64,000 bases of DNA from Candidatus Avelusimicrobium pullarium. GTDB lineage: Bacteria; Elusimicrobiota; Elusimicrobia; Elusimicrobiales; Elusimicrobiaceae. A program made the translations under genes and the position numbers. The stretch lies in assembly GCA_944323745.1 (NCBI GenBank), contig CALUTQ010000001.1, positions 124,001 through 188,000 of the forward strand, in the 5' to 3' direction. Numbering within the stretch: the first letter of the stretch is position 1; each line of letters starts with the position of its first letter. The notes below the pieces were generated by a model. It ran no database searches, was not told the origin of the DNA, and saw only the letters and a program-made list of their open reading frames with translations. Shown here in pieces: positions 3,778 to 47,605 of this stretch.

Positions 3778-5001
3778 ATGAGTTTAAAAGAAACCCAATT
3801 AGATTTGGCTTTATTGCAAATAAACGAACTGGCCGGCCTCTACGGCAAGGACAGTCCTTCCGTACGTCTGGTGCAAACCTTCCGCCAAAAGCGCCGCGCG
3901 CTGAAAAAACAAACCCATTTGTTTTTCCGCCGTTTATTTAAAAAACCAGCCGCCAAGCCCAAAGACAAACTGAAAGTACTGGTGCACGTGCGCGGCGGCA
4001 TCGGGGACGTATGTATGGCCCGTTTGTTTGTTTGCCGCCTGCGGGAAAAATTCCCCACCGCATTGATTTATTTTTGTTTTGACAATCAGTCCACGGTGGA
4101 AATGGTTTTTTCGGACGGAATTATTGACGGGTTTGTATCGCGCAAATATGACCCGCTGGAATATGATTTGGTCATAGCCGGCTGCCACGCGTTCAATTTT
4201 GACTATTACGATTTGCCCCGCCTGCAGCAGTTGGCCCCCGGATGGATGAACGACTTTAAAGCCGCGCTGGCTTTGCAGCAAAAAATAAAAGTGATTTTAA
4301 ACAACACCCCGCATTTGGACGGGCTGTGGGCGCAAATTTCCGTACAGTACGGCTCTTCCCGCGTGGCCAATATGGGCTGGACGGCCGGCATAGCCGTGGG
4401 GCAAAACGACCGCGCGCCTATTGCCTTGCCGACTGACAAAATGCAGGCCATTTTACAGCGCCATCACCTGTGCGACGGGCCCTATATTACCATCCACGAC
4501 GGCACCAACACAAACACCGATTTACACGGCCGCCACGCTACCCGCTGCTGGCCGCGCGCCCATTGGGAAAAATTTGCCCTGCTGTTTAAAAAACGCTTCC
4601 CGCATATACGTATTGTGCAGCTTGGGGCAGGCAACAGCGTGCCTTTTGATTTTGCCGATATCTGTCTGGTAGGAAAAACAACCGTGGCGGAGCTGCCTTA
4701 TATTTTGCAAAGTGCCCGCCTGCATATAGACGGGGAAAGCGGTATGGCGCACTTGGCAAATTTAACTGACGTACAAAGCATCGTTTTGTTTGGCCCGTCC
4801 CCTATGCCTTATTTGGCTTACGCGCGCAACGTAAACCTGCGTGCAGGGGACTGCCGCGACTGTATGTGTATTTTTGAAGATTGGATGAGCCGCTGCCCGT
4901 TGTTTGCCAACAACAATTGTCTGATTGCCATCCGCCCCGAACGCGTAATGGCCGAAGCGGAAAGGATACTGACGGAAGAAAAAACGTCTACAGAAAAATA
5001 A
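3778..5001 (+). CDS. glycosyltransferase family 9 (heptosyltransferase-like)
   Basis: A 407-residue protein resembling the ADP-heptose:LPS heptosyltransferase family, cytoplasmic or peripheral. Family signs are the N-terminal VHVRGGIGDVCMA block near residue 65 and the C-terminal donor-site block DGESGMAHLA near 320 followed by VLFGPS. The first 60 residues are basic and helical, an extension beyond the usual start. The C-terminal part holds five cysteines in a short stretch (CRDCMC, then two more), where many GT9 enzymes have a similar cluster. No ribosome site is obvious. The acceptor and donor cannot be told from sequence. Confidence 0.78.
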   Translation: MSLKETQLDLALLQINELAGLYGKDSPSVRLVQTFRQKRRALKKQTHLFFRRLFKKPAAKPKDKLKVLVHVRGGIGDVCMARLFVCRLREKFPTALIYFCFDNQSTVEMVFSDGIIDGFVSRKYDPLEYDLVIAGCHAFNFDYYDLPRLQQLAPGWMNDFKAALALQQKIKVILNNTPHLDGLWAQISVQYGSSRVANMGWTAGIAVGQNDRAPIALPTDKMQAILQRHHLCDGPYITIHDGTNTNTDLHGRHATRCWPRAHWEKFALLFKKRFPHIRIVQLGAGNSVPFDFADICLVGKTTVAELPYILQSARLHIDGESGMAHLANLTDVQSIVLFGPSPMPYLAYARNVNLRAGDCRDCMCIFEDWMSRCPLFANNNCLIAIRPERVMAEAERILTEEKTSTEK

Positions 5002-5006
5002 AACGC

Positions 5007-5035
5007 TTCACAAAAAAATAAAAAATTGCTATACT
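5007..5035 (+). promoter_or_regulatory. promoter of tRNA-Ala
   Basis: TTCACA (5007-5012), a 17-nt spacer and TATACT (5030-5035), preceded by TG in TTGCTATACT, an extended -10. Predicted start lies about 5 nt before the tRNA. Confidence 0.75.
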
Positions 5036-5047
5036 ATATGTACAGAA

Positions 5048-5123
5048 GGGCCCGTAGCTCAGCTGGGAGAGCGCCTGCATGGCATGCAGGAGGTCGCAAG
5101 TTCGATCCTTGTCGGGTCCACCA
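5048..5123 (+). tRNA. tRNA-Ala (anticodon GGC)
   Basis: A complete 76-nt cloverleaf: acceptor GGGCCCG/CGGGTCC, D arm GCTC-GAGC, anticodon stem CCTGC/GCAGG with loop ATGGCAT, T arm GCAAG-TTCGATC-CTTGT and an encoded CCA end. The third acceptor pair is G3:U70, the main alanine identity element, which confirms the amino acid independently of the anticodon. Confidence 0.97.
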
Positions 5124-5132
5124 TTTTAACTT

Positions 5133-5480
5133 GTACCCACTCGTAAGAGTGGGTTTTTTTATGAGTTGCTTTCCTGCAGGCGCGCTGCCGTGCCGTTGCG
5201 GTTGGGGAGGTCGCCTGCATTGTGGGGGCTTATATTTAAACCACTCGTAAGAGTGGGTTTTTTTATGCGCTGCTTTCCTGCAGGCGCGCTGTCGTGCCGT
5301 TGCGGCTGGGGAGGTCGCCTGCATTGTGGAGGCTTATATTTAAACCACTCGTAAGAGTGGGTTTTTTTATGCGCTGCTTTCCTGCAGGCGCGCTGCCGTG
5401 CCGTTGCGGCTGGGGAGTTCGCCTGCGTGGCAGAGGCTTATATTGTACCCACTCACAGGAGTGTTTTTTATGGTCTGCGT
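5133..5480 (+). repeat. tandem array of 104-bp units, three full copies plus a diverged fourth
   Basis: CCACTC of successive units begins at 5137, 5241, 5345 and 5449, an exact 104-bp period. Each unit starts with a terminator-like hairpin (CCACTCgtaaGAGTGG then T7), followed by ATG and a 29-codon open frame, then a larger stem made by TGCAGGCG and CGCCTGCA. Units 1 and 2 differ at only a handful of positions, while unit 3 diverges in its last third and unit 4 only keeps the start. Because 104 is not a multiple of three, long ORFs across the array are artefacts. Two 9-mers of the unit, GGAGGTCGC and CGCCTGCAT, also occur in the adjacent tRNA-Ala, which may hint at its origin. Confidence 0.93.
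5136..5160 (+). terminator. tRNA-Ala terminator, first hairpin of the repeat array
   Basis: CCCACTC/GAGTGGG stem with a GTAA loop and seven T, 12 nt after the tRNA CCA. The same hairpin recurs at 5241 and 5345, and a weaker form at 5449. Confidence 0.85.
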
Positions 5481-5520
5481 TCCCGCAGAGGCGTTGCCAG
5501 ACCGCAAGAAATTTTCTTAT

Positions 5521-5549
5521 AAAAAAGGCCCCTTGGCGGAGCCTTTTTT
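5521..5549. terminator. bidirectional terminator after the metallophosphoesterase gene
   Basis: AAAAAAGGC pairs with GCCTTTTTT around an 11-nt loop; it has A/T runs on both sides, closes the smc operon on the minus strand and backs up the repeat array on the plus strand. Confidence 0.75.
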
Positions 5550-5558
5550 ATTTCGTAT

Positions 5559-6302
5559 TTACATTCCTAAAGACAAACTGTCTATCAGAAACCCGGGCAG
5601 ACCTGCTTTGCGCATTTTCTGCTGTGTTTTGGCGAAGTCATACGGTTCGCGCATAAAATGGAAAATCTGCTGCCCGCTGTCCCACAAGCCAAAAGCCGCG
5701 CGCGTATCGTTATCCCGCGGTTTGCCTACGGAGCCGGGGTTGATTACATAGCGCAAAAACGGATGCAACACGATTTGCTGGTCCTGGTGCACCACAGCCA
5801 CGTGGCAGACGTTTTCGTCCCCCTCCATATAAAAAGCCAAATGCGTATGCCCCACAAAAAGCACCTGTCCTTTCCACAACGGATACGCCGCGCGATACTG
5901 CTGACAGCTGGCAAAATATTCTTTTATCGGGTCCATAGGCGTGCCGTGCACGACAGTAAACTGATCCCCGTGTACGATTTCCGGCAGGAAAGAAACCTGC
6001 CCCACCGTTTTTTTGTTCATTTGCTCGGCGCTCCAGTCCAACGAATGAAGCGCGTCAAAATTAAAATATTCACGCAATTCCGGATGGGAAAACACCGCAT
6101 CGTGGTTGCCCAGCACGCCCACGGCCAAGCCTTTGTCCTGCAGGGCCATATACTTTTGTACGCATTTTTCCGGATCGGGGCCGTAACCAATCAGATCCCC
6201 GCAGAAAATGTATTTTTCGGCGCCTTCTTTTTTCAGCCGCGCCAAAACGGCATCAAAGGCTTCCAAATTGCCGTGAATGTCAGACAAGACCCCGTATTTC
6301 AT
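5559..6302 (-). CDS. calcineurin-like metallophosphoesterase
   Basis: A 247-residue single-domain phosphoesterase, likely cytoplasmic, acting on a phosphodiester or phosphomonoester of unknown identity. All dinuclear metal motifs are present: Asp8 and His10 in SDIHGN, Asp36 in CGDLIGYGP, Asn66-His67 in GNHD, His119 in VVHGTP, and His152/His154 in GHTH. The GDLIGYGPDP block is typical of the YfcE/MJ0936-type group. Its ATG shares one base with the smc stop (TAATG), indicating coupled translation. Confidence 0.85.
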   Translation of the reverse strand: MKYGVLSDIHGNLEAFDAVLARLKKEGAEKYIFCGDLIGYGPDPEKCVQKYMALQDKGLAVGVLGNHDAVFSHPELREYFNFDALHSLDWSAEQMNKKTVGQVSFLPEIVHGDQFTVVHGTPMDPIKEYFASCQQYRAAYPLWKGQVLFVGHTHLAFYMEGDENVCHVAVVHQDQQIVLHPFLRYVINPGSVGKPRDNDTRAAFGLWDSGQQIFHFMREPYDFAKTQQKMRKAGLPGFLIDSLSLGM

Positions 6303-9300
6303 TACGATACCGCCAGCGCTTCTATCTTTTCTTTTTGGCTGTCGCTGGCGCGGTCGGCCAAGTTGACCGACATCACCTTAGACACCCCGCTTTCTTCCAT
6401 CGTAATGCCATAAAGGCGGCGGGCCGATTCCATCGTGCGTTTGTTGTGGGTAACCACAATAAACTGGGTGGTGGCGGAAAACTCTTTAATCAGGTTTACA
6501 AAGCGTTCCACATTGGCCTCGTCCAAAGCGGCGTCGGCTTCGTCCATAATGCAGAACGGGGCCGGGTTATGGGTAAAGAAAGCAAACAGCAAAGACAGTG
6601 CCGTAAGCGTTTTTTCTCCGCCGGACATAGAGGATATGTTGAGCAGTTTTTTGCCGGGGGGCTGCGCATAAATTTCTATGCCCGTTTCCAGCAGATTTTC
6701 CGGGTCGGTAAGCACCAAATTACATTCCCCGCCGCGGAAAAGCGTTTGATAAATGTTTTTAAAGTGCATTTTGACTTGTTCAAACGTATAGCGGAAATTG
6801 TCGCGCGTGGTAATGTTAATTTTGTGTATGGCGGAACGCAAATCTTTTTTGGCTTCGTCCAAGTCGTTAATCTGGCTTTTAAGGAAATTATGCCGCTCCG
6901 TCAGCGCGTCATATTCTTCCGGCGCGGTCATATTGACCGCCCCCATATTTTCAATACGTTTGCGCATCATTTTTACGCGTTCGTAGTCCACCTGTTTGTC
7001 GCCAAAGTTCATCTGTGCTTCTTCGGGCGTAATGTTCCAGCTTTCAAACAGATTGTTGACCACCGTTGTACGCTGGCGGCGGGCATTGGCCAAGGCGTTT
7101 TCCAAATCGTTTTGTTTTATATTCAGTTCGGAAAGCTGTTTTTTGTTGGCATTAAGCGCATTCATTTTGTCGCTGTATTCTTTTTTAAGCGCTTCTACGG
7201 ACTGGCGCAGTTTATATTCGTCCGTTTCCAGCTGGGCCAAGGTGTCACGCTCGGTGGACAGTTTGGCCTGCGTGGAGAGTTTTTCTTCCGCCAAAGCCTG
7301 CAAACGCGCATTGGCCGACTTGGCCGCCTCGGCACGTTTGCCTTCGTTCTGCACCAGGGTATTATATTCAAACTCCGTAGATTTCAAATCTACTTCTACG
7401 TTGTTTTTGCGTATTTTAAATTCATACAAAGCCCCGTTCAAACTATTGATTCTTCCTTTGGTCTGTTCGGCTTGCTTCTGCAAATCGGCCTTTTGCGTTT
7501 TCCAATTTTCGGTTTGGGCTTTGATGGTTTCCTGCTGTTTTAAAATATTTTGCAAATCGGCCTGCAGCTTTTGCACGTTTTCTTTGCGGCGCTGCACGCG
7601 CAGCATTAACTCCTGCTTTTGGGCGGCCTCTTTTGCCAGGGCTTCTTCGGCGGCTTTCAATTCGCGTTCTTTAGAAGCCAGTTCCCCTTGCACGGCGCCG
7701 GCTGCCACGGCCGCTTCCTGCGCGCTTATGCGCAGGGTGCGCAGGGTTTCTTCTGCTTTTTGCAAAGCTTCATAGTTGGAAATAATTTCTTTGGAAATTT
7801 CTTCTTCCCGCGTATTCTTTTCCGCCAACGCATTTTTGACGCTTTCTTCTTCGCCCCAGTAGGCTTCCGGCGCTGATACGCCTGCCGCACCGGCACTTAA
7901 GAAAAACCCGCCGCGCAGCGCACCGTCTTCCGCCGCTTCATAGGAACCTATCAGCACCGACACCAGATTTTCCAGCTCGGCATCGTACTTTAACTGCCCT
8001 TTCAGCGTGCCGGAAACACCGGAAGATGCCGGCACTTTATCCAGCAAAATGAATTTGCAGCGCGCCTTGCCGTGTGCTTTCAGTTTTTCTACGGCGGCCA
8101 AAGCAGCCGCTTCATTTTCACACAAAACCGCGTCCAAATATTTGCCGAAGGCTTCTTCCACCGCCGTGGCCAGCTGTTTGGGGTATTTAAGCGCTTTGCG
8201 CAAGGTGCCTTTTACGCCGCCGATGCCGGCCTCGCAGGCCAGCTTGACGCCGACCCAATAGGGGTCGTTTTCCCCTTGGGTACGAATCATTTCCAGCTTG
8301 GCGTTTAAAGCGGCTTTTTCCGATTTCAAAGCGGAAAGCTGTTCATTAAGCGCACTGCGTTTTTGTTGCAATTCTTTCTGTTTGGCTTCCCCCTGCGCAA
8401 TTTGTTCGCGCGCCGCAGCCGCGGCATTCTGTTTGGCCTGCAGGCGGGTGCGGATCTCGTCCAACGCGGCCCGCACGGCCGTTACGCCGCTGTCCTGCTG
8501 GCTGCGTTTTTCCAGGGTAATCAAATCTTCGTTTTCGCGTTGTTCATTGGCCTGCTCCAGCGAAATTTTATTTTGGCATTCCATTTGGTTTTGCACCAAA
8601 CGCATCAAATCGGTGCTGGCACGCTGAATTTGTACGTCCGTTTCACGCAGCTGCCGTTCCTGATTTTGGGACAGGGCAAATTCTTCGTTATATTGTTTTT
8701 GCAGGGGGGCCAGCTGGCCTTCCAAATCGGCCAGTTGCGCTTTGAGTTTGGCAATGGCGGGTTCTATTTCTTTAATGCGGTTTTGCCCGCGTTCGGCTTC
8801 GCTGCCGGAAGCGGCCAACTGGGCCGTAAACTCCGCGGTCAGGTTATCGCAGTTTTTGATGGCGCCTTCCAATAAGCCGACCTGATATTTGCTGGCGGCA
8901 ATTTTTTCGTTAAACTCGGCCACTTCTTTCTGCTTATGGGTTAAATTTAAGTCCATCGCGGCCGTTTGGCCTTCCTGGGCGGAAATTTGCGTTTCCAAAT
9001 CTTTGCTGCGCGCAAGCACCGGCGCCAGCTCGGCGCTGTGTTTGGCGATCAGGCCGTCGGCCTCTTTAATGGAACAAAGCGAAATGGCAATTTCGCTTTC
9101 TTTGAGTTCTTCGCGGTATTTTTGGTACAGGCGGGCTTTGCGCGCTTCGCCGTCCAATTTTTTAATTTGTTCGGCAATCAGCGCCACCGTGTCGGACAGG
9201 CGGGCCAAGTCCATATCCACGCGTTCCAAACGGCGGATGCATTCCTCCCGCTTGGCTTTGTATTTGGACACCCCTGCCACTTCTTCAAACATTTCGCGGC

Positions 9301-40375: not shown

Positions 40376-41190
40376 TGCTAAAGGCCGATTTGCATACCCA
40401 TTCCCGCTTTTCCGACGGAACCTCCACCCCGCAGGAGGTGGCGTACGAAGCCTGGAAAGCCGGCGTAAAATTGTTTGCACTTGCCGATCACGACACCACG
40501 GACGGCGTACTGCAGGCCAAAGCCGAATGTGAAAAACGCGGGATAGACTGGGTATGCGCGGTGGAAATCAGCACGCGCGAACACGACCATCTGCATTTTT
40601 TGGGTTATAACGTTGACGTAAACAATGTTTCTTTTCAGCAGTTTTTAAAACAAAACCGCGAAAACCGCATACAACGCATTAAAAAAATCATCAAACAAAT
40701 TGCAGACAGCGGCGTGAACCTGACGGAAGAAGACGTCTTTTCGCTGGCGGGCAACACCGTGTCGCGCGCGCACGTGGCAGACGCCTTGAAAAAAAAGAAA
40801 ATTGTTTCCAGCCGTCAGGAGGGCTTCCGGCAGTTTTTGGTTCCCGGCCAGGTCGGTTATGTTCCCTCAGCCGGCGTAACGGTGGTGGAAGCTATTGCCC
40901 AAATTAAAAAAGCCGGCGGTTTGGCCGTTATGGCGCACCCCGGTCTGGTGCAGGATGTATGGAATTTCCCCGTATGGGTAGAAGCCGGTTTGGACGGGCT
41001 GGAAGTGTTTTATCCGTCCCACAGTTATACCCTGAAACAGGAATTGCTGAAGATTGCACGCAAATATGATTTATTTGCCACGGGCGGCTCCGATTACCAC
41101 GGCCCCAATGCCGGACGTATTACCTCTTTGGGGATGAACATCCCCCAGCCTTACAGCGACCGCCTGCTGCGCAAACTGTTAAATAAATAA
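40375..41190 (+). CDS. PHP domain phosphoesterase (RnaAM/TrpH-like)
   Basis: 271 residues. Related enzymes hydrolyse 3',5'-nucleoside bisphosphates or trim short 5' RNA ends. All PHP metal motifs are visible: His7 and His9 in DLHTHSRFSDG, ADHDTTDG, the glutamate in VEIST, AHPG, and GSDYHG near the C-terminus. The RnaAM group has the same length and insertion between the second and third motifs. It follows the NifU gene and ends at a strong terminator. Confidence 0.88.
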   Translation: MLKADLHTHSRFSDGTSTPQEVAYEAWKAGVKLFALADHDTTDGVLQAKAECEKRGIDWVCAVEISTREHDHLHFLGYNVDVNNVSFQQFLKQNRENRIQRIKKIIKQIADSGVNLTEEDVFSLAGNTVSRAHVADALKKKKIVSSRQEGFRQFLVPGQVGYVPSAGVTVVEAIAQIKKAGGLAVMAHPGLVQDVWNFPVWVEAGLDGLEVFYPSHSYTLKQELLKIARKYDLFATGGSDYHGPNAGRITSLGMNIPQPYSDRLLRKLLNK

Positions 41191-41201
41191 TCTGCCGTCA
41201 T

Positions 41202-41233
41202 AAAAACCCCCGCTTTTAAAAGCGGGGGTTTTT
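41202..41233. terminator. terminator between the PHP gene and the giant MFS fusion
   Basis: A perfect 32-bp palindrome, AAAAACCCCCGCTTTT with its complement, serving both converging genes. Confidence 0.9.
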
Positions 41234-41242
41234 ATGTTTTGT

Positions 41243-44200
41243 TTAATTGTTGGCTAAGGGTTCGGCTCCGTCAACGGGCGGCTGTTGATTGGCGTCCGAG
41301 CCGTCGTTTTTGTCTTTATTCTTGTTGAACGTATTTTTAAGGCCGGCCAAGGAGCTCTTTACAAACTTAACCAGCGTAGAGTTTTTCATCATACCGGTCG
41401 TACAAGCCAAACTGGCTACCAAGGCGCCCATTGCATACCAGATATCCAGGTTGGTCGTGCCGAACCATTCGTTTAAGTGGGACGCAGGCACCGTCAAGCC
41501 GCCGGCCAAAGCCATTGTTACGGCTAAGACGACGGAAATTTCGCGCTGCAGTTTGGGGTTTTTCTTCGTAATGTAGTTATACATTTGAGAGAAATAGTTC
41601 CCCACGCCCAAGCTGGTAACCACGGCGCCCACAATAGCCGGGGTAATGGCCCCGCCGCCGGCCAGCATAATCACCGTACCCAAGGCGGACAAACCGCTGC
41701 AGAACAAGTACATTGTAGACAAGCTGATGCGCGTAGCCAGCAGGTTGCCCAGCAAGCGTCCCAAAATCAACGGCACATACAAGCACACCGCCACCAGCAG
41801 GTTGGCCGCGTCTTTATCCTGAATGACCAGGTTCAAGTTCATCGCAAACGCGCTGGAGATGGTAAACTCGTGCACGCTGGCTAACGTCATTGCCAGCGTA
41901 ATCATTGCCACGCTGGGCGCGTGCAGGAACACCTGCCAGGGCGAAATGGAGTTATTTTCCAAATGATGCAGCGTAGAAGAAAACTCTTTGGCCCATTTAG
42001 CACCTTCTTCGGCCGGCAGTTCTTTCATTAAGCCTTCTAAAAATTTCTGTTCCAAATCGGCCAGCACTTTGCTGCGCATAGCCGCCAGTTCTTTTTTATG
42101 CAGCCCTTCTTTGCGGTAGGCTTCCGTAATGGTGCCGGCGCGGGACTGTATTTTTTTGGCAATACCTTCCAGCAAATCGGCTTCTTCCTGCTGGGAAAGC
42201 GCACCATTCTGTACCGCTTGGTGCAAGGCGGCAATACTTTCGTCCACCACCGCATAGCCTTTGCGGGTGGCGTCGGCCACGGTAGGCACGGTATAGGCGT
42301 CACGCAAATTGGCACGCAAGGTGCGTATGGTTACCCACAAGGCGTAGGCCCCAAATACCGGAAAGCTGATGGAATACACAAAATGCGCGTCCACGCCCGT
42401 GGTCCATAAAATAGCTTTGTTGATAGCCCAGGGCAAAGCCAAGAACAGCAGGGTGCCCAGGTTTTTATACACAAAGCTCAAGTTATACATCAGCAGGTTG
42501 CGCATAGATTCGGGCGAGTTCTTTTTCGTCCAAACCTGTTTCAAGCGGGCGGTTAAGTCTTTAAAAGAAATCTTTTCCTGTTTGGTGCCCACTTCTTCTT
42601 CTTTTTCTTTTTCTTCCGGCACTTTGCCGCTGTTGGCCGCCACCAACATATTGGAAGTTACCTGCTGCAGCACGCTGGCCGCCGAGCGCAGGATAAAAGC
42701 CGACACGATAACCGCCACGGCAATGCGGCTGGCCGAATGTTCCTGGGCAATACCGTAAAAACCCACAGACAACGGTATCAGGTTGGCAAAGCTGGTCATA
42801 AAGCCGGCCAGTACGCTGAGGCGTTTTTCGCCCATACGGCGCAGCACCGGGTTAAGGAAGGACGCCAAACCGGGGATGACGTAGTTAATGACCATCATCA
42901 AGCTGGTGGCGGAAGCGGAGCTGATGCCCAAGTCCGAATGGATAATGGGGCCCATCGTTTTGCCTAACGAGTTGTTGTAAATTTGCTGGTCCCTGTACAA
43001 AATAGGGGCTTTGTTTTTGGTGGGCAGCACCGCAATCGGGAAGGTGCTCTTGCTGTTTTTAAGCACTTCCACCATATTGGCAATTTGGTTTTTAGGCAGG
43101 CGGATATAATGATCCGTCACCGCCACAGACTGCGTGCTGAAAGGCTTTAAAATGCCGATCTGTCCGTCTTCCCGCAGCACCAAACGCGCCTGGTCGCGCA
43201 GCAGTTTTTTGCGCACTTCCACCTCAATAGGCAAGGCGGTCATACCGTCGGCGCTGTAAAGCGGGGTGCGCAGCGTTTTTTCGGCCACATTGGGGCGGCG
43301 CTGCAGTTTGATACGGAAAGGCGAAGGCAAGTTGGCTTTAACGACCAGATTTACAAATTCGTTCCACTGCTGCGGGGTGCCCATAAATTTAAAGAAGAAA
43401 TGCGACATTGTTTTGGGTTCTTTTATTCCGTCCCGCAGTTGGGCGTGGAACTTTTCATTAAACGTAATGCGGTTATAGCCGCTGGCTTTAATGCGGGGGT
43501 CCAGCAGCAGGTTTACCGGCAGGACGGTTTCTTCGCCGCCTTCCTGTTTTACATAGGTCAGGCGGAAGCCGCTTTGCGGGTCAAAGTCGTCCCCTTCCTG
43601 CACATCAAATACTTCTTGCGTAGACAGCGGGTTGGAAATGTCCGTCTTGCCAAAACCCAGCACCGGCAAAGCAAACAAGGATAACACGGCGTCTTTAATG
43701 TCGGCCGACGAGGAGGAAGAAAACTCCACCTGCAAGCCAGAGGACAAATGTTTGGCAAACGTGTGGCGTATAGAGGAACCCGTGCGGGTGGTTTCCAAAA
43801 CGGCATTTTGATAGGCGCGGTTGACCAGAGCCGAGGCTTTTTTAACGGCGCGGCTGTTTCTGATTTTTTCCATCAGCCCGCCCAGCCCGTTCATACTCAA
43901 TACTAACCCGCCGGAAAGGCGCTGCGCCAAGGCCGTTTCAAATGCAGAAGCGGCAAACGCACCATTGGGGAAGAAGCGTTCCCACGCGGCACGCTGGACG
44001 TCTACCTCAGGAGCGGCCTGTTGGGCGGCCTGCGCCGCTTCTACGGCGGCAACTTCCTGTTCGTATTTGGCGTTTTGTTTTAAATAATCCGTTACAAACT
44101 GCGGTTGGGCAAACCCTTTGCCGATTAAGAAACGCGGGGAACCCATCTGCCGCCACATATCCGGCGTGGCAACGGCCGGCACAAAGGCAAACAACGGAGC

Positions 44201-46696
44201 CGTTTGAGAAACCGGCAGTGCAGCGCGCGAAGCCGTGCCCAACTTAAGCACGTTATTGACGGGCAGCAGGGCGGAAGCATTAGCCCCGGAAGCGGCACGC
44301 AGCGGGGAAAGGGCCCACGTGGGGGCCGCACTCATTTTTAAGAGGGAAGATCCTTGCGCGACTACCTGTTCCGTGCGGGCCAAGCCGCTCAAGCCGCTTT
44401 CGGCACGCAGGAAAGCCTGCAAACCGGCAGACGGCAGCGGCGTCATATTTAACGACAAGGCCAACGCGGCGGCCGCGGTTTTGCGTCTGAAAGCCTGCCC
44501 TATGCCCTGAAAAAGTTCTTTTGTATCATACCAGGCGTTAGAGCCGGTGGCCGATACGCTTTCCCACCAATTTTTAAACAGAGAAGGCTTTTGGGAAGAA
44601 ATCGTCGGGTTTACGGGGCGCCAGCCCATCACTTTCTGGCCAAGCGCATTGGTTACTTCCGTCTGTACCCAAGCCGGTTTAGCCGCTGCCGTATTGGAAA
44701 CGGCCGGGCCGGAGAGTTTCATCTCGGCCGCGGCAGCCACGCGGGCGGCCTCTTTTTCGGCCTGAGCTGCCTGCCAGGCGGCGCTTTGAGCCGCTTTAGC
44801 CGCTTCGGCCTGTTGGGCGGCGGCCAGCCATTCTTTGCCTATAGCCTGCGCTTCAGCCGTGCTGGTCGCGGCGGCACGGGGCGCAACGGGAGCCGCTTTT
44901 GCGGCAACGGGGCGGGCGGCCGCGCTGCGTACGGCTGCGGCGGGGGCCGTTGCTTTTGCGCCCGCTTTGCCAAAACCGCGCAGTTTAGCCACCAGTTTGG
45001 CAGAACCGTTCACGGCCGACTTTACCAAAAGCGGAAGCGTAATGATAATGGTTAAAATGTCTAAGGCGCCTAAACCGAAATTGATTTTTTCCTGTCTGCT
45101 GTATTGGGCAAATTTTTCGCCGTCGCGGGTTTTATAGGCCGCGGCCTGCGTTTGGCTCAGCGCCCCCGTGCGGACCAGTGCATCCGCGGCGCGGGTTTTC
45201 ATCCGGCGCTGGGTTCCTTCGTTCATATCTGCATAATTGGCCCCCAGCAGTTCCTGCCACAGGGAAACGGCCTTTTGCCCCAGCACGCCGGAAGCAAAAC
45301 GCCCGTTATCAGCCAGCAGCACCCCTTCTGCCAGCGGCCGGTTATAGCCTTGGGCGGTCAAAATGTCTTTTGCCAACGCGGCGCTCTTGCCGTTTTTGGC
45401 CGCATCGGCCGCCAGCAGGGCGCCGAGGTCTTCGTAGACGTTACCTACGGGCAGCTGATATACGCCGTCGCTGGTAAGCGGTTGGGCGGTAACAATATTT
45501 AAATCTAAATTCGGATAGTAGGCGCGGGCGGCATCTTCATCCAGATAAGAAAAGCGGGCCGTGTAGTTGTCCAAATACCGGCCGGAGGAAGTATTTTCCT
45601 GTGCCAGACGCGAGAGCCCTTCAAAAGAGACGTACCCCAACCCCGTCAAAAAACGGCCGCCGGCCGTAGGGCGGGCTTCTTCTTTAAGAAAGCGTTTCAG
45701 CATTTCGTAAGAATAAATGCTGTTAATGCCCATCAGCAGCACACTGCCCTGATAGACCACCAAAGAACCTAAGCCTTCGCGGTGTTTGGCCAACATAAAG
45801 TTATAAATGCCGTCCACCGCTTTTTTGTCGTTATGCTGTACCGCCAACACGGCCAGCGCTTCCAGCACATCGGTGCTGTATTGGCACATAGGCACCGTGC
45901 GTAAATTGTATTCATAGGCACCGCGGACATTTTTGCTGTCTGCATTGCCTAACTTTACCGCTTTGCGGTTGTCTTGGCACAACCCTTCACGCTGCAGCAT
46001 TTGCAGCAAAAACGCGCGGGCGGCGGCCTCATCTTCCGCCGCTACGCCATAGGCAGAAATGGCTTTGACGATTTCCGTGCTGGTGCCGATTATGCGCCCC
46101 CCGGCCACATATTCGGAACGGCCCAACTGACGGTTCCAGGCCGTTTGCACGTCCCAGTCCCCGGCCTGATTGCGCATCCCCTGCAGATCCAGCCGCAAGC
46201 CGGCCCAAGCCCAGTCTTGTTTGCTCAGTTCTTTGCCGCGGTAGACGGCCGTTTCCTGCGGGGTCCCCTGATAGATAAAATCCAACCGCGGTAAAACGGG
46301 CACATAATGATTGGCCGTGCTTTGGGCGGGGCCGATGCTGGCGCCGCCGCGGCGCCGATATTCTTCGGCCGCCGCCTGTTCTTGGGCTAAAATACGGTTT
46401 AAGTGGTCCACCCCTTGGTTTACGCTGTCCTGTGCTTTGGCCTGCAGTACCGCCACTTTTAACGCGTCTTCTATTTTTTGGGCGTTTTGCGCCACTTCGC
46501 TTTGCGCCAGCAGCGGCGGACGGGCTACGCGGGTATTGTCAGGCGCGGCCACGTACCCTTTATTCCATTCTTCCACGGAAGAAAAGACAATTCTTCTTTT
46601 TTGGGCACGGGCTGCATCCAGCGCTTGGGCGTACGACGGGGCAACGCTGGTGAACAGAACAGCAAAAGACAAGAACAGCGATAATAGTTTTATCAT
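41243..46696 (-). CDS. giant exported protein fused to an MFS-like transporter
   Basis: An intact 1,817-residue frame. A Sec signal peptide (1-24, ending PSYAQA) is followed by about 520 soluble residues, a hydrophobic segment near 545-562, an Ala-rich stretch (about 578-660), more low-complexity and soluble sequence, and from about 1250 to 1770 a block of roughly a dozen membrane helices that looks like an MFS transporter, with a charged loop (about 1360-1380) and a 120-residue helical central loop (about 1475-1590). The tail is polar (KNKDKNDGSDANQQPP). I know of no described protein with this order. It is a single gene with its own promoter and terminator. Substrate and role are unknown; the MFS call itself is by helix pattern and the glycine-rich segments. 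Confidence 0.85.
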   Translation of the reverse strand: MIKLLSLFLSFAVLFTSVAPSYAQALDAARAQKRRIVFSSVEEWNKGYVAAPDNTRVARPPLLAQSEVAQNAQKIEDALKVAVLQAKAQDSVNQGVDHLNRILAQEQAAAEEYRRRGGASIGPAQSTANHYVPVLPRLDFIYQGTPQETAVYRGKELSKQDWAWAGLRLDLQGMRNQAGDWDVQTAWNRQLGRSEYVAGGRIIGTSTEIVKAISAYGVAAEDEAAARAFLLQMLQREGLCQDNRKAVKLGNADSKNVRGAYEYNLRTVPMCQYSTDVLEALAVLAVQHNDKKAVDGIYNFMLAKHREGLGSLVVYQGSVLLMGINSIYSYEMLKRFLKEEARPTAGGRFLTGLGYVSFEGLSRLAQENTSSGRYLDNYTARFSYLDEDAARAYYPNLDLNIVTAQPLTSDGVYQLPVGNVYEDLGALLAADAAKNGKSAALAKDILTAQGYNRPLAEGVLLADNGRFASGVLGQKAVSLWQELLGANYADMNEGTQRRMKTRAADALVRTGALSQTQAAAYKTRDGEKFAQYSRQEKINFGLGALDILTIIITLPLLVKSAVNGSAKLVAKLRGFGKAGAKATAPAAAVRSAAARPVAAKAAPVAPRAAATSTAEAQAIGKEWLAAAQQAEAAKAAQSAAWQAAQAEKEAARVAAAAEMKLSGPAVSNTAAAKPAWVQTEVTNALGQKVMGWRPVNPTISSQKPSLFKNWWESVSATGSNAWYDTKELFQGIGQAFRRKTAAAALALSLNMTPLPSAGLQAFLRAESGLSGLARTEQVVAQGSSLLKMSAAPTWALSPLRAASGANASALLPVNNVLKLGTASRAALPVSQTAPLFAFVPAVATPDMWRQMGSPRFLIGKGFAQPQFVTDYLKQNAKYEQEVAAVEAAQAAQQAAPEVDVQRAAWERFFPNGAFAASAFETALAQRLSGGLVLSMNGLGGLMEKIRNSRAVKKASALVNRAYQNAVLETTRTGSSIRHTFAKHLSSGLQVEFSSSSSADIKDAVLSLFALPVLGFGKTDISNPLSTQEVFDVQEGDDFDPQSGFRLTYVKQEGGEETVLPVNLLLDPRIKASGYNRITFNEKFHAQLRDGIKEPKTMSHFFFKFMGTPQQWNEFVNLVVKANLPSPFRIKLQRRPNVAEKTLRTPLYSADGMTALPIEVEVRKKLLRDQARLVLREDGQIGILKPFSTQSVAVTDHYIRLPKNQIANMVEVLKNSKSTFPIAVLPTKNKAPILYRDQQIYNNSLGKTMGPIIHSDLGISSASATSLMMVINYVIPGLASFLNPVLRRMGEKRLSVLAGFMTSFANLIPLSVGFYGIAQEHSASRIAVAVIVSAFILRSAASVLQQVTSNMLVAANSGKVPEEKEKEEEVGTKQEKISFKDLTARLKQVWTKKNSPESMRNLLMYNLSFVYKNLGTLLFLALPWAINKAILWTTGVDAHFVYSISFPVFGAYALWVTIRTLRANLRDAYTVPTVADATRKGYAVVDESIAALHQAVQNGALSQQEEADLLEGIAKKIQSRAGTITEAYRKEGLHKKELAAMRSKVLADLEQKFLEGLMKELPAEEGAKWAKEFSSTLHHLENNSISPWQVFLHAPSVAMITLAMTLASVHEFTISSAFAMNLNLVIQDKDAANLLVAVCLYVPLILGRLLGNLLATRISLSTMYLFCSGLSALGTVIMLAGGGAITPAIVGAVVTSLGVGNYFSQMYNYITKKNPKLQREISVVLAVTMALAGGLTVPASHLNEWFGTTNLDIWYAMGALVASLACTTGMMKNSTLVKFVKSSLAGLKNTFNKNKDKNDGSDANQQPPVDGAEPLANN

Positions 46697-46710
46697 TGGG
46701 GGACCTCTTG

Positions 46711-46738
46711 TTTATATTCTGCTAGATTACAAGGGCAA
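46711..46738 (-). promoter_or_regulatory. promoter of the giant MFS fusion gene
   Basis: Minus-strand TTGCCC (46733-46738), 16-nt spacer and TATAAA (46711-46716); AAGAGG lies before the ATG. Confidence 0.45.
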
Positions 46739-46740
46739 AT

Positions 46741-46785
46741 AAAAGGGCCTAAAGTCCTATTATTGTATAGGTATTTGGCCCTAGA
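46741..46785 (-). terminator. terminator-like hairpin upstream of the giant gene
   Basis: AGGGCC (46744-46749) pairs with GGCCCT (46777-46782), with inner CCTAT/ATAGG, and is followed on the minus strand by TTTTATTT. It contains the 15-mer GGCCTAAAGTCCTAT that recurs at 47072. It could end a short transcript that starts near 47009. Confidence 0.5.
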
Positions 46786-47021
46786 GATAATTTGCCTATA
46801 AAACTGGCGTAACGACTTGTGTTTGTTGAATTGGATGAAACGGCTGGGAAATATATTTACGAATGAATGGAAGTATAACAGAGAAACAGGAGCTGCTTTT
46901 GGGGAAACGACTTTCCGCTTGTCTGTCGGCCTTAAAGACCGCGTCAGCAAGCCGGAACGCACCACAAGATTTGTTGTGCAAAGCATACAATCTCCTTTTG
47001 TCCTTCTCCGCTTATATTATA
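46786..47021 (-). other. gap with a possible short transcription unit
   Basis: On the minus strand, TATAAT (47016-47021) is followed by AAAGGAGA and, 5 nt on, an ATG at 46986. The frame that follows (97 codons to 46693) runs through the hairpin and promoter of the giant gene and its residues look unlike a real protein; two other frames of similar size overlap. I regard this as either a small RNA, a decayed gene or chance, and make no coding call. Confidence 0.3.
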
Positions 47022-47048: not shown

Positions 47049-47076
47049 AAAAAAGGCCTACCTGTAAAGTAGGCCT
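47049..47076 (-). terminator. terminator of coaD
   Basis: AGGCCTAC pairs with GTAGGCCT and six T follow on the minus strand. Confidence 0.85.
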
Positions 47077-47101: not shown

Positions 47102-47605
47102 TTAAAAAATTTGCAAGGCGGGGTATTTCTTTTTTAATGCTTCGGCCACATTGGCGGGCACCCAGGCTGCCGGCAAACGTCCCGCCGCACAGGCGGCTTT
47201 GACGGCCGAAGAACTGACGTCGGCCCACGTCGGTTCGCAAGGCAGCAGCACCGTTTGCAGGGAAGGGAAAAAGGCCCTGCTCAGGCGGTGGTTTTCCAGC
47301 TCAAACTCACAGTCGCGGCCGTTTCTTACGCCGCGCACACACACCGTAAGGCCTTTTTTTTGCATATAGTCGGCCAGCAGGCCGCCGTCGTAATCAACCG
47401 TTACGTTTTGGATATTTGCCCGTTTTAGCGCTTCTTCTATCAGCGCCTTGCGTTCTTCCACGCAAAAAAGCGGTTTTTTGGCCGGATTGACCAACAGCAG
47501 CACAACGACGCGCTCAAATAAACGCCGTGCATTTTTTACTATCGCCAAATGCCCGTTGGTAAACGGGTCAAACGTGCCCTGACAGACGACTGTTTGCTGA
47601 TTCAT
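47102..47605 (-). CDS. coaD: phosphopantetheine adenylyltransferase
   Basis: Makes dephospho-CoA in coenzyme A synthesis. The 167-residue protein has the nucleotidyltransferase motif GTFDPFTNGH (10-19), the VRGVRNGRDCEFE substrate block, and a DVSSSAVK segment near 130 in place of the usual ISSSLVRE. Normal length. AGGGAG precedes the ATG. It is divergent from dgt with 48 bp between. Confidence 0.92.
   Translation of the reverse strand: MNQQTVVCQGTFDPFTNGHLAIVKNARRLFERVVVLLLVNPAKKPLFCVEERKALIEEALKRANIQNVTVDYDGGLLADYMQKKGLTVCVRGVRNGRDCEFELENHRLSRAFFPSLQTVLLPCEPTWADVSSSAVKAACAAGRLPAAWVPANVAEALKKKYPALQIF

What the first reader, a model, noticed from the sequence alone, without database searches (positions are those of the whole stretch)
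41243..46696. 1,817-residue fusion of a signal-peptide-led giant region with an MFS-like transporter
Seen: one intact frame with a Sec signal, about 1,240 residues of mainly soluble sequence with an Ala-rich linker and a single internal hydrophobic segment, then about a dozen membrane helices in an MFS-like pattern with a 120-residue central loop. MFS transporters are normally about 400-550 residues and lack a cleavable signal; a 1.2-kilobase-scale exported sensor or scavenger domain fused to one would put substrate capture and transport in a single chain. It has its own promoter and perfect terminator, so it acts alone. I do not know any described family with this plan.
Basis: partly seen in the sequence, partly recalled or inferred. 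Interest (0 to 1): 0.75.

Follow-up and report, generated by a model that had tools for sequence, protein, structure and literature searches.

The report
Giant modular envelope transporter-like protein family
This is a real 1,817-residue protein that joins an exported helical domain to a transporter-type membrane domain; it belongs to an undescribed family of giant proteins found so far only in gut Elusimicrobiaceae, whose exported half is swapped and copied between genes while the transporter halves differ.

Summary
The gene is real: 1,817 codons on the MINUS strand (46696..41243). It has a conserved Sec signal, a helical (alpha-solenoid-like) domain, a conserved hydrophobic segment at 536-566, an Ala-rich linker, an alpha/beta domain (about 1040-1226) and a C-terminal MFS fold (model pLDDT 77; Z 35.8 to FLVCR2). 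It is not an assembly fusion. The C-half occurs in 55 of 66 genus members searched and in two sister genera; no stand-alone C-half was found. Deep relatives carry the same full plan.

This genome has five such giants. Four have an MFS-type C-half; the fifth ends in a receiver-like domain.

In the reference-size Elusimicrobium minutum genome, three giants share a 100%-identical 3-kb block coding the N-half, with different signal peptides before it and different membrane regions after it. Exact 77- or 141-base contig-end overlaps at the same boundaries in three MAGs show the same thing.

'All 1,240 residues exported' is doubtful, because the 536-566 segment probably returns the chain to the cytoplasm. 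Transport is inferred from the fold and from K1411, E1610 and R1647, which are conserved across the deep paralogue families. Substrate is unknown.

The parts
41243..46696 (-). giant gene, 1,817 codons plus stop (ATG..TAA)
   Evidence: orthologues in 55 of 66 same-genus genomes by C-half profile
46704..46708 (-). Shine-Dalgarno AGAGG, 7 nt before ATG
   Evidence: sequence
46628..46696 (-). Sec signal peptide, residues 1-23, cut expected after SYA
   Evidence: leader conserved in family; AxA-type site read from sequence
45092..46159 (-). N-terminal helical (alpha-solenoid-like) domain, residues about 180-535, the module shared by all giants
   Evidence: A8 profile finds it in 5 own giants and 50 genomes of one family only; model helical, low overall pLDDT 49 but 70-90 in parts; weak solenoid matches
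44999..45091 (-). internal hydrophobic segment, residues 536-566, probable membrane span, followed by basic residues
   Evidence: KD 1.7-2.3 in all 10 N-half relatives, invariant D546/P555
44717..44974 (-). Ala-rich part of linker (about 575-660)
   Evidence: sequence; no confident structure
43019..43579 (-). alpha/beta domain, residues about 1040-1226, with invariant K1130, R1199, K1202
   Evidence: pLDDT 80-92; also present in paralogue families A6, A7
41384..43018 (-). MFS-fold domain, residues about 1227-1771 (TM1 position polar, TM2-TM12 hydrophobic)
   Evidence: VIA-align Z 35.8 over 373 residues to FLVCR2, TMt 0.76 to MdfA; Pfam MFS_1 in 17/29 relatives
41918..42313 (-). charged helical central loop between MFS halves, residues 1462-1593
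   Evidence: helices; 18 K/R on average
41199..41236 (.). perfect palindromic terminator between convergent genes
47054..47076 (-). terminator-like hairpin after coaD, upstream of the giant gene

Best explanation
It is one member of an Elusimicrobiaceae-specific family of giant inner-membrane proteins. SHOWN by sequence or model: a Sec leader, a shared helical domain (180-535), a hydrophobic segment (536-566), a long Ala-rich linker, an alpha/beta domain (1040-1226) and an MFS fold (1227-1771). INFERRED: the helical domain lies in the periplasm. The 536-566 segment spans the membrane. The linker and alpha/beta domain lie on the cytoplasmic side at the foot of the MFS bundle. The MFS part is a working secondary transporter whose central charges (K1246, K1411, E1610, R1647) bind an ionic, probably anionic, substrate. 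The periplasmic domain then acts as a common docking or recruiting module for the transporter halves of different giants. This would explain why that block is kept identical between genes by recombination in some genomes while signal peptides and membrane halves differ. Confidence: architecture and family about 0.9; MFS as active transporter about 0.6; periplasmic N-domain with cytoplasmic alpha/beta domain about 0.6; common docking module about 0.35.
For: C-half model pLDDT 77, pTM 0.69. The listed Foldseek hits are all MFS carriers, and VIA Z is 32-36 over 330-388 residues. MFS_1 matches 17 of 29 relatives, best 2.2e-9. The loop charge pattern follows positive-inside for TM2-TM12. K1411, E1610 and R1647 are conserved in the sister families A6 and A7 (E1610 is Q in one A7 row). 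The same full plan occurs in deep paralogues: A6 vs A1 E 3e-27, A6 vs A2 E 2e-12. Five giants in this genome carry the N-domain. Three E. minutum-size-genome giants share a 100%-identical 2,994-bp block with different flanks. Exact 77- or 141-base contig-end overlaps occur at the same boundaries in G016, G020 and G033. The 2,164-aa paralogue ends in a receiver-like domain, which suggests that sequence after the hydrophobic segment is cytoplasmic.
Against: The window protein itself has no Pfam hit. The TM1 position is polar (KD 0.39) with an invariant lysine, so the MFS is unusual and the topology before TM2 is not proven. Shorter orthologues (1,150-1,300 aa) keep the signal peptide but have a different N-half and no strong span before TM2. 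That would also fit a wholly periplasmic soluble region. The N-half model is poor (pLDDT 49). No partner gene or substrate clue was found. N-halves in the window's own genome are only 66% identical in DNA, so homogenisation is not visible here.
Confidence: 0.55

Rival explanations
1. One reading: after signal cleavage everything up to TM2 (about 1,235 residues) is periplasmic, TM1 has been lost as a span and replaced in function by the signal peptide, and the 536-566 segment is a buried or peripheral helix. The large domain captures substrate and hands it to an 11-helix MFS-like carrier.
For: TM1 position polar in nearly all relatives; 11 hydrophobic spans; TM2 must start outside by positive-inside. 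Short orthologues have a signal peptide and no strong span before TM2.
Against: In the model the TM1-position segment occupies the TM1 site at pLDDT above 80, and structure alignments start at it. The 536-566 segment is hydrophobic (1.7-2.3) with basic flank in every long relative. A paralogue ends in a receiver-like domain.
Confidence: 0.3
2. The MFS fold is used as a membrane anchor or signal receiver, not as a carrier (a transceptor or scaffold), with the exported solenoid as sensor and the alpha/beta domain as output.
For: Same N-module is joined in a paralogue to a receiver-like C-end instead of an MFS; MFS halves in paralogues are strongly diverged; polar TM1.
Against: Charged residues in TM5, TM7 and TM8 (K1411, E1610, R1647) are kept across deep paralogue families, as expected of a working core.
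Confidence: 0.25
3. A polymorphic-effector-like system: a constant N-part with exchangeable C-ends used against competitors.
For: Constant block with variable ends in E. minutum-size genome and MAGs; several giants per genome.
Against: C-ends are multi-span MFS-type domains, not toxin domains; no small immunity-like neighbour; gene is alone between a terminator and a convergent gene.
Confidence: 0.07
4. Assembly or recent gene-fusion artefact.
For: None found beyond the rarity of the plan.
Against: Full-length orthologue at 75% identity in G010; same plan in three genera; one clade with 100/100 support.
Confidence: 0.01

Closest known systems
Major facilitator superfamily carriers (FLVCR1/2, SPNS2, MdfA, SotB, G6PT)
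   Same: 12-position MFS fold, central charged loop, positive-inside pattern; VIA Z 32-36.
   Different: Known carriers have no 1,230-residue N-terminal part with a Sec leader; TM1 here is polar; window protein has no MFS_1 hit of its own.
HEAT/ARM-type alpha-solenoids (importins, AP2, designed ARM repeats)
   Same: N-domain modelled as stacked helices; best VIA Z 9.5.
   Different: Matches are weak, within the range of common helical arrangements; no sequence relation.
Rhs/Cdi-type polymorphic proteins (from general knowledge)
   Same: Constant part shared between paralogues, different C-ends, recombination between copies.
   Different: C-ends are membrane domains, no toxin or immunity gene, and the signal peptides also differ.
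Fusions of binding proteins to transporters (e.g. SBP-ABC fusions; general knowledge)
   Same: Idea of exported receptor and carrier in one chain.
   Different: No SBP fold or family match in the N-half; carrier is MFS, not ABC or TRAP.

Membership tests
Major facilitator superfamily | MFS fold in two six-helix halves | tested here: met
   (Z 35.8, rmsd 3.1, 373 aligned residues)
Major facilitator superfamily | sequence match to MFS profile | tested here: inconclusive
   no hit for the window protein; 17 of 29 relatives match MFS_1, best 2.2e-9
Major facilitator superfamily | all 12 helices hydrophobic, N-terminus cytoplasmic | tested here: inconclusive
   TM2-TM12 hydrophobic with positive-inside loops; TM1 place polar with invariant Lys
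Major facilitator superfamily | transport of a small solute | not testable with these tools
   no assay; conserved core charges only
Polymorphic toxin / Rhs / Cdi proteins | constant N-part with variable C-end between paralogues | tested here: met
   in relatives; not visible at exact-repeat level in the window's own genome
Polymorphic toxin / Rhs / Cdi proteins | toxin-domain C-end with adjacent immunity gene | tested here: not met
   C-end is MFS-type; neighbours are coaD and a convergent PHP-type gene
Substrate-binding-protein fusion transporter | SBP fold in the exported part | tested here: inconclusive
   model weak (pLDDT 49), matches are helical solenoids
Alpha-solenoid (HEAT/ARM) proteins | stacked helix-pair superhelix | tested here: inconclusive
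   Z up to 9.5 over 276 residues, rmsd 5.4; sequence scan negative

The most novel reading that the evidence does not exclude
Elusimicrobiaceae run a combinatorial set of giant envelope proteins: one exported helical module, kept identical by recombination between genes in some species, is plugged onto different membrane or output domains (several MFS-type carriers, a receiver-like end, a trypsin-like end), so that one docking or recognition surface serves many outputs. This is a previously undescribed design principle for bacterial transport and sensing.
Probability: 0.3. Interest if true: 0.82.

Novelty: new variant of a known kind. Interest (0 to 1): 0.6.

Why it matters
Small gut Elusimicrobiaceae (1.1-1.8 Mb) spend about 2% of their genome on these giants (five genes, about 31 kb, here), yet no Pfam family covers them. 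An MFS carrier with a giant exported module, and a gene family that exchanges and homogenises that module while keeping separate signal peptides and membrane halves, would be new for transporters. It also explains why short-read assemblies of these bacteria break at these genes.

Tried and rejected
Assembly fusion: rejected. Separate-gene orthologues: the 853-aa (L028) and 839-aa (L029) C-half frames turned out to be longer genes with one in-frame stop (the L029 contig starts inside the N-part). Exact repeats among the giants of the window's own genome as cause of MAG breaks: not found; longest exact match was 23 bases, although exact repeats were then found in E. minutum-size G102 and three MAGs. 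Giants at the window genome's own contig ends: none. Strain hypervariability as the cause of the breaks: replaced by the exact-repeat reading. G034 did not show terminal identity (longest exact match 77, internal), so it is weaker support. Pfam, NCBIfam and PDB sequence searches of the window protein: nothing useful. Rfam on the 5' region: one sub-threshold miRNA match, taken as chance. Foldseek on the N-half: no E below 0.001. Papers on signal-peptide MFS fusions or on E. minutum giants: none found in the held library; the E. minutum genome paper is not held.

Full report
OBSERVATION. The frame is on the minus strand, ATG at 46696, TAA ending at 41243, 1,817 residues. AGAGG stands 7 nt before ATG. 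The gene lies between coaD (47102-47605, same strand, followed by a terminator-like hairpin at 47076-47054) and a convergent PHP-type gene ending at 41190. A perfect palindromic terminator (41199-41236) separates the convergent pair. It is therefore probably transcribed alone, but a promoter is not demonstrated.

ANATOMY. Hydropathy gives the signal peptide, one strong internal segment (536-566, KD 2.23) and a C-terminal membrane block. The C-half (1000-1817) modelled with 29 relatives gives pLDDT 77 and pTM 0.69. The model has an alpha/beta domain at about 1040-1226, then an MFS bundle with a helical 130-residue central loop. Foldseek hits are MFS carriers (TMt up to 0.76, MdfA). VIA-align gives Z 35.8, rmsd 3.1, 373 residues, model range 1227-1772, to FLVCR2. 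Pfam misses the window protein but MFS_1 matches 17 of 29 relatives, best 2.2e-9. The N-half model is poor overall (pLDDT 49), with helical parts at 70-90 between residues 210 and 530. Its best structural neighbours are HEAT/ARM solenoids with Z up to 9.5, which may be only a common arrangement.

TOPOLOGY. Family-averaged loop charges follow the positive-inside rule for TM2-TM12 (loops 1350-1403 with 9.8 K/R, 1462-1593 with 18.3, C-tail with 7.8; outer loops near 0). The segment in the TM1 place is polar in most members and holds invariant K1246. The 536-566 segment is strongly hydrophobic with basic residues after it in all N-half relatives. Long forms thus fit: leader, periplasmic helical domain, span, cytoplasmic linker and alpha/beta domain, then a normal MFS. 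Shorter orthologues (1,150-1,300 aa) keep a leader but have a different N-half (only the leader aligns) and no strong span before TM2, so a wholly periplasmic soluble part cannot be excluded. A 2,164-aa paralogue in the same genome ends in a receiver-like domain (Pfam Response_reg E 2.3e-4, below the curated cut-off), which favours a cytoplasmic position after the span.

FAMILY. In the phylum sample (341 genomes) the C-half profile matches 69 genomes: 55 of 66 in the same genus, and two other genera of the same family; none outside the family. The N-domain profile matches 50 genomes, again in three genera of one family. Named records place the genus with Candidatus Avelusimicrobium / UBA1436 gut Elusimicrobiaceae. 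Deep paralogues (1,570-1,770 aa) are homologous over both halves: A6 vs A1 E 3e-27 and A6 vs A2 E 2e-12. The whole plan is therefore old within the family. K1411, R1647 and K1202 are kept in all aligned rows of A1, A6 and A7, K1130 in all but one gapped row, and E1610 in all but one. A maximum-likelihood tree of C-halves puts the seven window-like rows in one clade (100/100); only two of these are complete, the others are labelled long from their contig breaks. No stand-alone C-half gene was found; two apparent cases are single-stop versions of longer frames.

PARALOGUES AND CASSETTES. The window's genome (1.62 Mb) has five giants with the N-domain: 1,817, 2,129, 2,299, 1,769 and 2,164 aa. The first four have MFS-type C-halves; for the 2,129-aa and 2,299-aa proteins this rests on profile matches only. 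G102, whose single contig of 1,643,562 bases fits Elusimicrobium minutum Pei191 (identification from memory of its size), has three giants of 3,965, 2,741 and 2,530 aa. They share a 100%-identical block of 2,994-3,095 bases (residues about 63-1071) while their signal peptides and C-terminal membrane regions differ. In MAGs of the window's genus, contigs often end just after the signal peptide and start again near residue 860. In G016 (both boundaries) and G020, two different contig ends share exactly 77 terminal bases and then diverge; in G033 it is 141. Exact overlaps of assembler k-mer length are what an exact repeat leaves behind. So identical N-half blocks in different giants occur directly in one genome and, by this signature, in at least three more. 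In the window's own genome the 1,817 and 2,129 genes are only 66% identical in DNA, so there the copies have drifted apart.

INTERPRETATION. The architecture and the family are well supported. That the MFS part carries a solute is inferred from the fold and the kept core charges. That the exported module is a shared docking or recognition surface is an inference from its being kept identical between otherwise different giants.

LIMITS.

Noticed in passing
L177:2372-8866 (G000:C2, minus): 2,164-aa signal-peptide giant with the same N-domain, two middle repeats with NGHG...HSC and SC-SG motifs that look caspase/CHAT-like by eye, and a C-terminal receiver-like domain (Response_reg 2.3e-4).
   Followed up: partly
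L135:5266-17163, L184:1296-9521, L185:1880-9472 (G102): Three giants share a 100% identical 3-kb internal block with different signal peptides and C-ends; the 3,965-aa one has two membrane clusters and trypsin-like stretches (Trypsin_2 E 2.5e-15).
   Followed up: partly
G107:C16, G109:C33, G122:C9 (L136): Related frames of 5,570, 5,077 and 4,510 aa in a sister genus.
   Followed up: no
46693-46986 (-): 97-aa frame directly upstream, overlapping the giant's start codon; not tested for conservation, may be chance in a long leader.
   Followed up: no
G000:C1 end and G000:C2 start (L197, L198): The two contigs of the window's genome share exactly 77 terminal bases inside a tandem-repeat tract with a period of about 85 bases.
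   Followed up: no
L028 and L029: C-half relatives with one in-frame stop between the N-part and the C-half.
   Followed up: partly
L144:2-4066 and 4335-9035 (G123): Two giants of the 1,570-1,660 aa kind sit in tandem in a sister genus.
   Followed up: no
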